DNA of 64,000 bases, from contig JAFXUJ010000014.1 of the NCBI GenBank assembly GCA_017525025.1, positions 1-64,000 on the forward strand, given 5' to 3'. Source of the DNA: Elusimicrobiaceae bacterium (GTDB taxonomy: Bacteria > Elusimicrobiota > Elusimicrobia > Elusimicrobiales > Elusimicrobiaceae). Positions 7,297-29,335 of this stretch are shown here, piece after piece; position 1 is the first letter of the stretch, and each line of letters begins with the position of its first letter. The position numbers were made by a program, and so were the translations under genes. The notes beneath the pieces were generated by a model. It saw only the letters and a list, made by a program, of their open reading frames with translations. It searched no databases and was not told the origin of the DNA.

Positions 7297-7788
7297 TTAA
7301 GGAAGCAAGTAATAATCCCCGGATGAAATTGTAGAAGAAAAAACTCCTCCTAAACTTTTACATACGCGTGCGGCAAAAGCCTTTCCTTTTCTTGCCCAAC
7401 AGAGTTTTCTCTCATTACTAACGGGATAGTAAGTATTATCCCCCATTTTGCAATATAGTGTTAGGCCGCCGCTTCCATCATTAGTTACACAACTGGTTTT
7501 CCTATCCGCTGACACTATTCTTTTACCATTATATTCCAGACTCCAACCGGACGGAATATCCAAATCCAGTTCTTCAAAGTAATCCGTATATACACCGTTT
7601 TCCATACGGTATCTTTCCTCGGATTGCCGGTAAGCATGCGCCAAAATGATTAGTTGCGAAAAACGACTTTTTGCCACAGACAATTCATACTGTGGCAAGG
7701 CCACGGCAGCCAAAATACCAATAATAAGTACTACTACCAACAACTCTATAAGCGTAAAACCTTTCGTACAACTATTTTTATTTCCCAT
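7297..7788 (-). CDS. Type IV pilin-like protein 1
   Basis: 163 residues. A short basic leader (MGNKNSCTKG) is followed by FTLIELLVV, the prepilin peptidase site G/F with Glu at +5, and a hydrophobic N-terminal helix of about 20 residues ending in ALPQYE. The C-terminal globular part contains Cys residues that could pair (for example CVTN and CWAR), as in PilE/PilA pilins. RBS GGGGGAG lies about 5 nt before the ATG. It would be matured by a PilD peptidase such as the one at 47937-48719 and assembled into a pilus or type II-like pseudopilus. It has its own promoter and lies apart from assembly genes. Confidence 0.9.
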   Translation of the reverse strand: MGNKNSCTKGFTLIELLVVVLIIGILAAVALPQYELSVAKSRFSQLIILAHAYRQSEERYRMENGVYTDYFEELDLDIPSGWSLEYNGKRIVSADRKTSCVTNDGSGGLTLYCKMGDNTYYPVSNERKLCWARKGKAFAARVCKSLGGVFSSTISSGDYYLLP

Positions 7789-7820: not shown

Positions 7821-7838
7821 AGTGTATCAAAAAAAAAA
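7821..7838 (-). promoter_or_regulatory. Pilin 1 promoter: T10 tract plus extended -10
   Basis: Read on the minus strand, ten T are followed by TGATACACT, an extended -10 (TG-N-TACACT), 33 nt before the ATG (first base of the -10 to start). No good -35 is visible. The same arrangement and distance recur before pilin 2. Confidence 0.6.
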
Positions 7839-7881
7839 TGGGCAAGACGCTTTTGTTTTTTCCCCCTTATTTAGAAATTCT

Positions 7882-18816: not shown

Positions 18817-19275
18817 TCACAGCCTTTGGTCAAACACGTTGTAGTATTTATAGTTACCGGAAGTATGGTGATATTTTCCACCCACGGCGACACAAAGCCG
18901 ATTGGCCCGTTCGTTGTCCGCAGGCACTCTGCAAAAGAAGAAAATTCTATTTGTTAAGTAACGTGCAATTTCAAAGGTCGCCCCTGCAATAGCACCGGAT
19001 TTATTACAATAAGCCGATCCTACATGGCAGGTCCAATCCGGGGCCGTTACATCCAACACCTCCAGATCCGAACTCCAACTACCGGTTTGTGTGTAATGTA
19101 ATTTTTGAGCATTCAGTAAGGCTCTCCCTTGTACAACAGCTTCCATGGCTTTTGATTTATCCACCGCTTTTTGATATTGCGGTAAAGCTATACTGGCAAG
19201 TATACCTATAATTAGTACCACTACCAACAATTCTATTAGGGTAAACCCTTTTTTATTACTGATTTTATTTTTCAT
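18817..19275 (-). CDS. Type IV pilin-like protein 2
   Basis: 152 residues. Leader MKNKISNKKG, cleavage before Phe, Glu at +5, and an N-terminal helix nearly identical to those of pilins 1 and 3 (GFTLIELLVVVLIIGILAS). The globular part has paired Cys residues (CHVGSAYC; later CRVP and LCVAVGG). The RBS region is less clear than in the other pilins (GTGTAGGAATACGT). It lies convergent to, and very close to, the rluD-like gene, so it is a single transcription unit driven by the promoter at 19308-19329. Confidence 0.9.
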   Translation of the reverse strand: MKNKISNKKGFTLIELLVVVLIIGILASIALPQYQKAVDKSKAMEAVVQGRALLNAQKLHYTQTGSWSSDLEVLDVTAPDWTCHVGSAYCNKSGAIAGATFEIARYLTNRIFFFCRVPADNERANRLCVAVGGKYHHTSGNYKYYNVFDQRL

Positions 19276-19307
19276 ACGTATTCCTACACGAGGGAGATAA
19301 CAAAGTC

Positions 19308-19329
19308 AGTGTATCAAAAAAAAAAAAAA
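19308..19329 (-). promoter_or_regulatory. Pilin 2 promoter: T14 tract plus extended -10
   Basis: On the minus strand, fourteen T (19316-19329) are followed by TGATACACT; the -10 TACACT starts 33 nt before the ATG, exactly as in pilin 1. A weak TTGTTT lies 18 nt upstream. Homopolymer length may vary between cells. Confidence 0.6.
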
Positions 19330-19659
19330 TAAAACAAGATTGATCTGTTTTTTACCGACACAAGAAATACCCATAAAATCTAACCCTTTTTTGATGTTGC
19401 GGGGCGAAATCTAATCTCTTATGATAATATTTGTAGTTAATTTGTTCGGGGGGAATCGTAAAAGATTCTTCCTTTAAGGGGACAACAACACAGGGGATAA
19501 GAGGAACGTGGTACACAGGGGTAGCACGCACCTCAAAGAAGCCCCGGCCGGAGTACCCGGTGGGGCTTCTTAAATTTTCATCCGACTCGGCACGGGAGGG
19601 GACCCGCACGCCGGGCAATCCAAGGGGCCTTATTTCGTGGGAAAGATAAGGCCTCTTTC
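19330..19659. other. Hairpin-rich intergenic region without a convincing gene
   Basis: About 330 nt between pilin 2 and the GNAT gene. It contains a 10-bp inverted repeat AAGAAGCCCC/GGGGCTTCTT (19536-19571) with further internal complementarity, and a second one GGCCTTAT/ATAAGGCC (19626-19653) followed by T-rich sequence on the plus strand. G/C-rich blocks between them (19580-19625) look structured. An 88-codon minus-strand frame runs through the hairpins but has non-protein-like composition. A structured RNA is possible; I matched it to no known class. Confidence 0.4.
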
Positions 19660-28728: not shown

Positions 28729-29268
28729 TTATTGGAATACGCCAAATTGGCTGCCGGTTATTACTTGGCAAATGGGATCAATCGTATTGATCTGCCCCAT
28801 ACTCCGACCGCATCTGCGTTGGGAGAAAGTGCCATCGGGTTCCACCGTAAACATAAGCGTGTACTGGTTGTCTTGGGAACCATCCCCCGTGATAACCACC
28901 CCGTTGTTAGCGCGCTCGGCCCAAATCTGGGCAAAAGTATGCCCATTGCCGAAATCTCCTACCGAGTTGGTAATTAAAAAATTACTCACTACAGCTTTGT
29001 TGGTACCGACGGCCGCTCCGTTAACCGTAGCATTGATACCGGGGATCTCTATATCCAATTCATTTAAATTTTGGGCAAATGTATTCGTCGCTAAATAATG
29101 GGCAATCTGGCCTTTCGCCACGGTTTCCAACATTTGAATACCCTCACTGGCACGGGCCTTTTCAACGGCCCGCATATATTGCGGCAACGCAATGCTGGCC
29201 AAAATACCGATAATAAGAACAACTACCAATAACTCTATAAGAGTAAACCCTTTATTTTGGTGTGACAT
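28729..29268 (-). CDS. Type IV pilin-like protein 3
   Basis: 179 residues. Leader MSHQNKG, prepilin site GFTLIE, the shared hydrophobic helix ending ASIALPQYM. The globular domain has two Cys (CGRS and CQVITG) and ends FGVFQ, resembling a PilE-type D-region. RBS AAAAGGAG. It has a recognisable sigma70-type promoter, stronger than those of pilins 1 and 2. It is a single gene between terminators. Confidence 0.9.
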   Translation of the reverse strand: MSHQNKGFTLIELLVVVLIIGILASIALPQYMRAVEKARASEGIQMLETVAKGQIAHYLATNTFAQNLNELDIEIPGINATVNGAAVGTNKAVVSNFLITNSVGDFGNGHTFAQIWAERANNGVVITGDGSQDNQYTLMFTVEPDGTFSQRRCGRSMGQINTIDPICQVITGSQFGVFQ

Positions 29269-29306: not shown

Positions 29307-29335
29307 AGTTTAGCAGAAAAAAAATAGAGCGTCAA
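29307..29335 (-). promoter_or_regulatory. Pilin 3 promoter with T8 in the spacer
   Basis: TTGACG (29330-29335), spacer 17 nt that contains eight T (29317-29324), and TAAACT (29307-29312) on the minus strand. Change in the length of the T-run would change -35/-10 spacing. Confidence 0.7.

What the first reader, a model, noticed from the sequence alone, without database searches (positions are those of the whole stretch)
19308..19329. Poly-T tracts of 14, 10 and 8 nt in the promoters of three pilin-like genes: possible phase variation
Pilin 1 (T10, 7829-7838) and pilin 2 (T14, 19316-19329) have the tract directly before TGATACACT at the same distance from the ATG; in pilin 3 the T8 tract lies within the 17-nt spacer between TTGACG and TAAACT. 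Variable homopolymers in promoter spacers switch fimbriae on and off in Bordetella, which is the analogy. Tract instability is inference.
Basis: partly seen in the sequence, partly recalled or inferred. Interest (0 to 1): 0.58.

Follow-up and report, generated by a model that had tools for sequence, protein, structure and literature searches.

The report
T-tract promoters of Elusimicrobium pilin genes
A gut Elusimicrobium relative starts about twenty of its 58 pilin-like genes from look-alike promoters whose middle is a run of Ts, and relatives hold that run at one favoured length, so slips in the run could tune each pilin gene separately, although switching itself was not shown.

Summary
The tracts are real. 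T10 and T14 belong to a promoter family: -35 (TTG...), a run of T, then an extended -10 (GATAMACT). In this 1.55 Mb genome 20 of 58 N_methyl genes carry it, and all 15 T/A homopolymers of 10 or more lie in it. Pilin 3's T8 is a different promoter, and T8 runs are background. The family is widespread: 345 matches of one form in 42 of 66 congeneric genomes with 0 in the control, and 116 of another in 8 of 24 genomes of sister genera.

Two findings bear on phase variation. Against free switching: length is held. 111 of 146 listed pure tracts are exactly T12 (16-nt spacer), and where the flanks are shorter the run is longer, so the spacer stays at 15-16. For instability: promoters with identical flanks in one genome differ by one or two T (T10-T14 in one genome), and the window's own genome spreads over T9-T15.

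Best reading: a length-constrained homopolymer spacer whose slippage would weaken or strengthen each pilin gene independently (Mycoplasma vlp-like). Architecture and constraint are shown; switching within a population is inferred. No read-level or same-species comparison was possible.

The parts
18817..19275 (-). pilin 2, type IV pilin-like gene (152 aa)
   Evidence: PF07963 36.6 bits; PDB matches to type IV pilins, e.g. PilE/PilA, geopilin
19276..19307 (-). 5' leader of pilin 2 with AGGA ribosome-binding site; shared leader type with the other T-tract pilins
   Evidence: mean ungapped identity 0.57 over 30 nt after the -10 in 20 genes vs 0.29 for 37 other pilin upstream regions
19308..19313 (-). 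-10 hexamer TACACT, extended -10 context TGATACACT
   Evidence: sequence; family comparison
19316..19329 (-). T14 tract, in an 18-nt spacer
19332..19337 (-). -35 hexamer TTGTTT (in CTTGTTTTA)
7297..7788 (-). pilin 1, type IV pilin-like gene (163 aa)
   Evidence: PF07963 34.7 bits
7821..7826 (-). -10 hexamer TACACT of pilin 1
7829..7838 (-). T10 tract, in a 13-nt spacer
7840..7845 (-). -35 hexamer TTGCCC of pilin 1
28729..29268 (-). pilin 3, type IV pilin-like gene (179 aa); different promoter class
   Evidence: PF07963 36.8 bits
29307..29312 (-). -10 hexamer TAAACT of pilin 3
29317..29324 (-). T8 run in a 17-nt spacer; not of the family and at background frequency
29330..29335 (-). -35 hexamer TTGACG of pilin 3

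Best explanation
The tracts are the spacers of a family of sigma-70-like promoters that drive many of the type IV pilin-like genes of this Elusimicrobium-related lineage (and, in a sister genus, also secreted-looking Cys-rich proteins). RNA polymerase must reach a -35 (TTGACN, degenerate in the window's species) and an extended -10 (TGATAMACT) across a spacer made almost entirely of T. Selection holds the spacer at 15-17 nt, usually 16 = CG-T12-GA. Because the spacer is a homopolymer, slipped-strand mispairing adds or removes a T and moves the spacing off or back to the optimum, so each pilin gene can be turned down or up on its own, heritably and reversibly. Shown: the family, its near-confinement to surface genes in the loci read, the length constraint, the compensation, and the length differences between otherwise identical promoters. 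Inferred: that slippage is frequent within a population, that it changes transcription, and that the variation is useful.
For: 20 of 58 N_methyl genes of the genome have the promoter; 15 of 15 T runs >=10 in 1.55 Mb lie in it. Motif T9GATACACT with up to 2 mismatches: 20 places vs 1 control, 19 directly before an N_methyl gene and one 158 nt farther upstream of one. Genus-wide: 345 matches in 42 of 66 genomes, 0 control; 116 matches in 8 of 24 genomes of other genera of the family, 0 control. Downstream gene is a pilin in 59 of 60 fetched loci of five genomes and 10 of 10 in G014. Constraint: T12 in 111 of 146 listed pure tracts; spacer 15 or 16 in 94 of 116 in g5 although flanks mostly give 1, 3 or 4 non-T nt and the modal T counts shift to 14-15, 12-13 and 11-12. 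Lability: same flank letters, same genome, T10-T14 (18 loci of G076), T10-T13 (17 of G083), T13-T15 (13 of G085); in the own genome 172 of 190 promoter pairs differ in length, and the four supported sister pairs of T-class pilins all differ (tree with lengths). Spacer-tract indels switch vlp, maa2 and vmm in mycoplasmas (PMC2268961, passages); meningococcal homopolymers of 8 or more were mostly variable in colony sequencing (PMC5084427, passages).
Against: Length is far more uniform than free switching would predict: G013 14 of 14, G045 19 of 20, G019 41 of 47 at T12. A T-tract directly upstream of the -10 of the Mycoplasma agalactiae vpma promoter was reported not to generate variation (PMC2268961). 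The window's genome is the outlier in length spread, and its -35 is degenerate, so its spread may be relaxed constraint. No expression data, reads or same-species strains were available. In meningococci A/T tracts made up most weak candidates (157 of 165, PMC5084427).
Confidence: 0.55

Rival explanations
1. Static promoter architecture: the T run is a rigid, easily recognised spacer that fixes the spacing and strength of a pilin promoter. Slippage products are simply deleterious and removed; nothing is switched.
For: Sharp T12 mode over many genomes, compensation of flank and tract length to a 15-16 nt spacer, own-genome total-spacer variance 2.0 against 6.8 and 6.3 for its two parts (partly arithmetic where a substitution interrupts the run), vpma precedent of a non-switching T-tract.
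Against: A mixed-sequence spacer would give the same spacing without instability, yet the runs stay pure and T runs >=10 are absent elsewhere in the genome. Lengths differ among identical-flank promoters.
Confidence: 0.33
2. The element is a recognition site for a dedicated regulator or alternative sigma factor of a pilin regulon, with the T run read as sequence or DNA shape.
For: Conserved letters on both sides of the run (CTTGACNCG ... GATANANT) shared by dozens of loci; promoter and leader conserved while the proteins are only about 24% identical beyond residue 27; two surface-protein families share it in g5.
Against: The -35 and -10 look like ordinary sigma-70 elements, -10 letters drift between species (TAAATT, TACACT, TACAAT), and the flank before the run changes between genomes.
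Confidence: 0.1
3. Similarity by recent duplication or gene conversion of 5' cassettes, with length inherited rather than selected.
For: G013 leaders are 0.88 identical over 30 nt; in G076 length goes with -10 haplotype (7 of 8 GATACAGT promoters are T12, GATAAATT ones mostly T11).
Against: T12 recurs in at least 20 congeneric relatives with different leaders and -10s; T-class genes are not one clade on the pilin tree (11 changes, at least 3 forced).
Confidence: 0.02

Closest known systems
Mycoplasma hyorhinis vlp promoters (poly-A tract in each vlp promoter)
   Same: A multigene surface-protein family; each gene has its own promoter with a homopolymer tract, and indels in the -35/-10 spacer turn transcription on or off (PMC10502178 and PMC2268961, passages).
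   Different: Here poly-T; tens of loci per genome rather than a handful (vlp number recalled); pilins; a length shared by most loci and species; no switching shown.
Mycoplasma agalactiae vpma promoter T-tract
   Same: Run of T immediately upstream of the -10 of a surface-protein promoter (PMC2268961, passages).
   Different: One promoter only, and the authors report that the tract generated no variation: a warning for the present case.
Helicobacter pylori sabA T-tract rheostat
   Same: T-tract length tunes a sigma-70-like promoter of an adhesin in a graded, multiphasic way (PMC4081817, passages).
   Different: There the tract is adjacent to and outside the core spacer; here it is the spacer itself.
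Bordetella fim poly-C promoters
   Same: Homopolymer length controls fimbrial gene transcription (recalled).
   Different: Poly-C, activator-dependent (recalled); here poly-T between -35 and -10, and the genes are type IV pilin-like.

Membership tests
Homopolymer-spacer phase-variable promoters (M. hyorhinis vlp kind) | Pure homopolymer between -35 and -10 | tested here: met
   16 own-genome promoters with T>=9
Homopolymer-spacer phase-variable promoters (M. hyorhinis vlp kind) | Members of a surface multigene family each have their own tract | tested here: met
   20 of 58 N_methyl genes; 59 of 60 loci in relatives
Homopolymer-spacer phase-variable promoters (M. hyorhinis vlp kind) | Tract length differs among loci or strains | tested here: inconclusive
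   Differs among loci but strongly modal at T12; strains of one species not available
Homopolymer-spacer phase-variable promoters (M. hyorhinis vlp kind) | Length changes within a clone and correlates with ON/OFF transcription | not testable with these tools
   No reads, no expression data
H. pylori sabA-type rheostat | Tract adjacent to the -35, outside the core spacer | tested here: not met
   Tract lies between -35 and -10
Bordetella fim-type switch | Poly-C tract (recalled) | tested here: not met
   Tract is poly-T; no C or G run of 8 or more in the window
Type IV pilin-like proteins | N-terminal prepilin/methylation motif with hydrophobic helix | tested here: met
   PF07963 over cut-off in all three; PDB type IV pilins match pilin 2
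Type IV pilin-like proteins | Assembly ATPase encoded in the genome | tested here: met
   Four PF00437 matches in G000
Type IV pilin-like proteins | Prepilin peptidase encoded in the genome | not tested
   No search made

The most novel reading that the evidence does not exclude
Elusimicrobium-related bacteria carry a genome-wide combinatorial contingency system: tens of pilin genes (and, in a sister genus, secreted Cys-rich proteins), each behind its own homopolymer-spacer promoter kept near one length, so that single-T slips continually reshuffle which pilins a cell makes.
Probability: 0.35. Interest if true: 0.8.

Novelty: new variant of a known kind. Interest (0 to 1): 0.58.

Why it matters
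It would explain how small-genome gut bacteria use 58 to 106 pilin-like genes per genome, and it offers a large natural experiment: tens of promoters per genome that differ mainly in the number of Ts, held near one value. That lets the balance between promoter optimum and slippage be measured directly from metagenome reads. If the tracts prove stable, it is still a clear case of a homopolymer kept at a fixed length by selection on spacer length.

Tried and rejected
Same-species comparison: no second strain found. L097 (named GTDB r220 record) is the same DNA as G057:C39, 100% over 2,501 nt, so it gives no strain comparison; the closest species has 86% identity in nrdD. Viral contigs: the T7 pattern gave 1 stretch and the spacer pattern 48, none with a pure run longer than T8 and none with a pilin motif within 330 nt downstream; a protein search with pilin 2 found no relative there. 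This served as a background control.

'Pilin 3 belongs to the family' was rejected: no GATAMACT, T8 at background. 'T-rich spacers are general in this genome' was rejected for the window: of 21 sigma-70-like matches only pilin 3 has a T run over 6.

Literature: Elusimicrobi with pilin, type IV pil or phase variation, and Elusimicrobium with pili, gave 14, 13, 4 and 14 papers (listings read, passages of PMC8809381). By title and start of abstract none is on pilin promoters or phase variation in this phylum. The E. minutum genome paper is not held, so no claim is made that the pilin expansion is unpublished.

Caveats of method: one search listed 150 of 345 matches (in handle order); its pattern asks for at least 6 T, and the loci were chosen by a pattern that asks for 9, so short tracts are missed; the pattern also truncates short tracts. 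Four impure or N-containing rows were dropped from the length count. One of 21 own-genome rows (C2:177568) was left out as too far from its gene. One 70-aa fragment was dropped from the tree. The gapped upstream identities are inflated; the ungapped values replace them. One search printed each hit up to three times with shifted positions because of my file reading; only the sequences were used.

Full report
What is there. On the minus strand, pilin 1 (7297-7788) and pilin 2 (18817-19275) have T10 (7829-7838) and T14 (19316-19329), each starting 41 nt from the ATG and running into GATACACT; pilin 3 (28729-29268) has T8 (29317-29324) in TTGACG-17-TAAACT. All three match N_methyl PF07963, and pilin 2 resembles solved type IV pilins over its N-terminal region. 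The genome has 58 N_methyl matches and four PF00437 ATPase matches in 1.55 Mb. A record whose DNA is identical to a contig of a congeneric genome is titled 'uncultured Elusimicrobium sp.'.

A promoter family. Searching the genome for T9GATACACT with up to two mismatches gave 20 places against 1 in the reversed control; 19 lie directly before an N_methyl gene and one lies 158 nt upstream of another copy. Reading upstream of all 58 genes gave 20 with a T run followed by [GA]ATA[ACT]ACT. They share -35 CTTG..., the run, the -10, and a leader ending in CGTATAGGAGTACGTATG-like sequence. Over the first 30 nt after the -10 they are 0.57 identical, while the proteins are about 0.24 identical beyond residue 27; the comparable region of 37 other pilins is at 0.29. 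T-class genes are clustered but not one clade on the pilin tree (11 changes, at least 3 forced, shuffled mean 16.7).

Not chance. In the window no other homopolymer exceeds 8 nt. In 220,725 nt held of the genome all 16 runs of 9 or more lie 53-67 nt upstream of an N_methyl match (this sample is enriched for pilin loci). The whole-genome search found 24 T runs of 9 or more on both strands: the same 16, and eight others that are all exactly T9 and not of this promoter type. So every T/A run of 10 or more, 15 of 15, is in a pilin promoter. G and C runs were not searched genome-wide.

The family in relatives. CTTGANNCG-T6+-GNTANANT occurs 345 times in 42 of 66 congeneric genomes, 0 in the control. 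Fetched loci of five genomes show a pilin after 59 of 60 such promoters; the remaining one (L110) was not resolved. In G019, 42 of 47 have a listed N_methyl within 250 nt; of the other five, two are pilins, one is a pilin with a stop in its motif, and two end at contig edges. In G014 all 10 of 10 are pilins. In other genera of the family, 8 of 24 genomes (all in genus g5) have 116 promoters with different flanks. Of 13 examined there, eight precede pilins and five precede proteins that start with a signal-peptide-like stretch (by eye) and are Cys-rich; the three scanned have no Pfam match over the cut-off.

Length is constrained. Of 146 pure tracts listed, 111 are T12, 18 T11, 7 T10, 3 T13, and 7 are T7-T9. 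T12 with CG before and GA after makes a 16-nt spacer. In g5 the flanks mostly give 1, 3 or 4 non-T nt, and the modal T counts are 14-15, 12-13 and 11-12, so that the spacer is 15 or 16 in 94 of 116. In the window's genome the spacer also varies less than its parts (variance 2.0 against 6.8 and 6.3; rho -0.65, p 0.002), though part of this is arithmetic where a substitution breaks the run.

Length is also labile. Promoters with identical flank letters in one genome have T10-T14 (18 loci, G076), T10-T13 (17, G083), T13-T15 (13, G085), T11-T13 (18, G086) and T10-T14 (10, G088). In the window's genome 20 tracts run from 5 (interrupted) to 15, spacers from 13 to 19, and 172 of 190 pairs differ. The four supported sister pairs of T-class pilins all differ (T14/T12, T13/T12, T8/T13, interrupted/T14; tree, lengths). 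Pilin 1 (spacer 13) and pilin 2 (spacer 18) lie on opposite sides of the 16-17 optimum, which would fit two weakened states. That is inference.

How it most likely works. Polymerase recognition needs a 15-17 nt spacing. The spacer is a homopolymer, so slippage moves it in steps of one. Selection keeps most loci near 16 and slippage supplies neighbours. This gives a per-gene rheostat or switch. The uniform T12 in several relatives means that most loci in those assemblies are at the favoured length, so if there is switching it is biased to one state. In the window's species the -35 is degenerate and the extended -10 may carry the promoter, which would relax the spacing and could equally explain the spread.

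Comparison. The nearest kind is the poly-A tract of each Mycoplasma hyorhinis vlp promoter (PMC10502178, PMC2268961; passages). The H. pylori sabA T-tract tunes a promoter in a graded way but lies beside the -35 (PMC4081817; passages). The M. agalactiae vpma T-tract, placed like this one, was reported not to vary (PMC2268961; passages). So position alone does not prove switching. In meningococci, homopolymers of 8 or more were mostly variable in colony sequencing, but most weak candidates were A/T tracts (PMC5084427; passages).

Verdict. Observation confirmed; interpretation partly supported. The promoter family and its fixed-length T spacer are firmly shown and more interesting than the three tracts; switching remains to be tested with reads.

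Noticed in passing
L099-L109 (G062), L119-L132 (G045): In two relatives the -10 TACACT is followed in most promoters by only 6-7 nt before the ATG (TTTTGCATG, TTTCGCATG), which predicts leaderless pilin mRNAs, whereas the window's species has a leader with a ribosome-binding site.
   Followed up: no
L174, L175, L177, L178, L180 (genus g5): The same T-spacer promoter type stands before secreted-looking Cys-rich proteins; three scanned have no Pfam match over the cut-off.
   Followed up: partly
L015:1780-1800 and 1928-1956 (C7:226683 and C7:226841): A second copy of the promoter core lies 158 nt upstream of the working one, perhaps a relic of a lost gene.
   Followed up: no
G014, G019: 106 N_methyl matches in each of two genomes of 1.6 and 1.3 Mb, against 58 in the window's genome.
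   Followed up: no
L121, L165: Pilin genes behind T-promoters with a damaged N-terminal motif (CTLIEL; stop in FTLI*L), possible pseudogenes.
   Followed up: no
19276-19307 and homologous leaders: The leader CGTATAGGAGTACG of many T-class pilins has short complementary arms (CGTA/TACG) around the AGGAG, a possible small hairpin at the ribosome-binding site.
   Followed up: no
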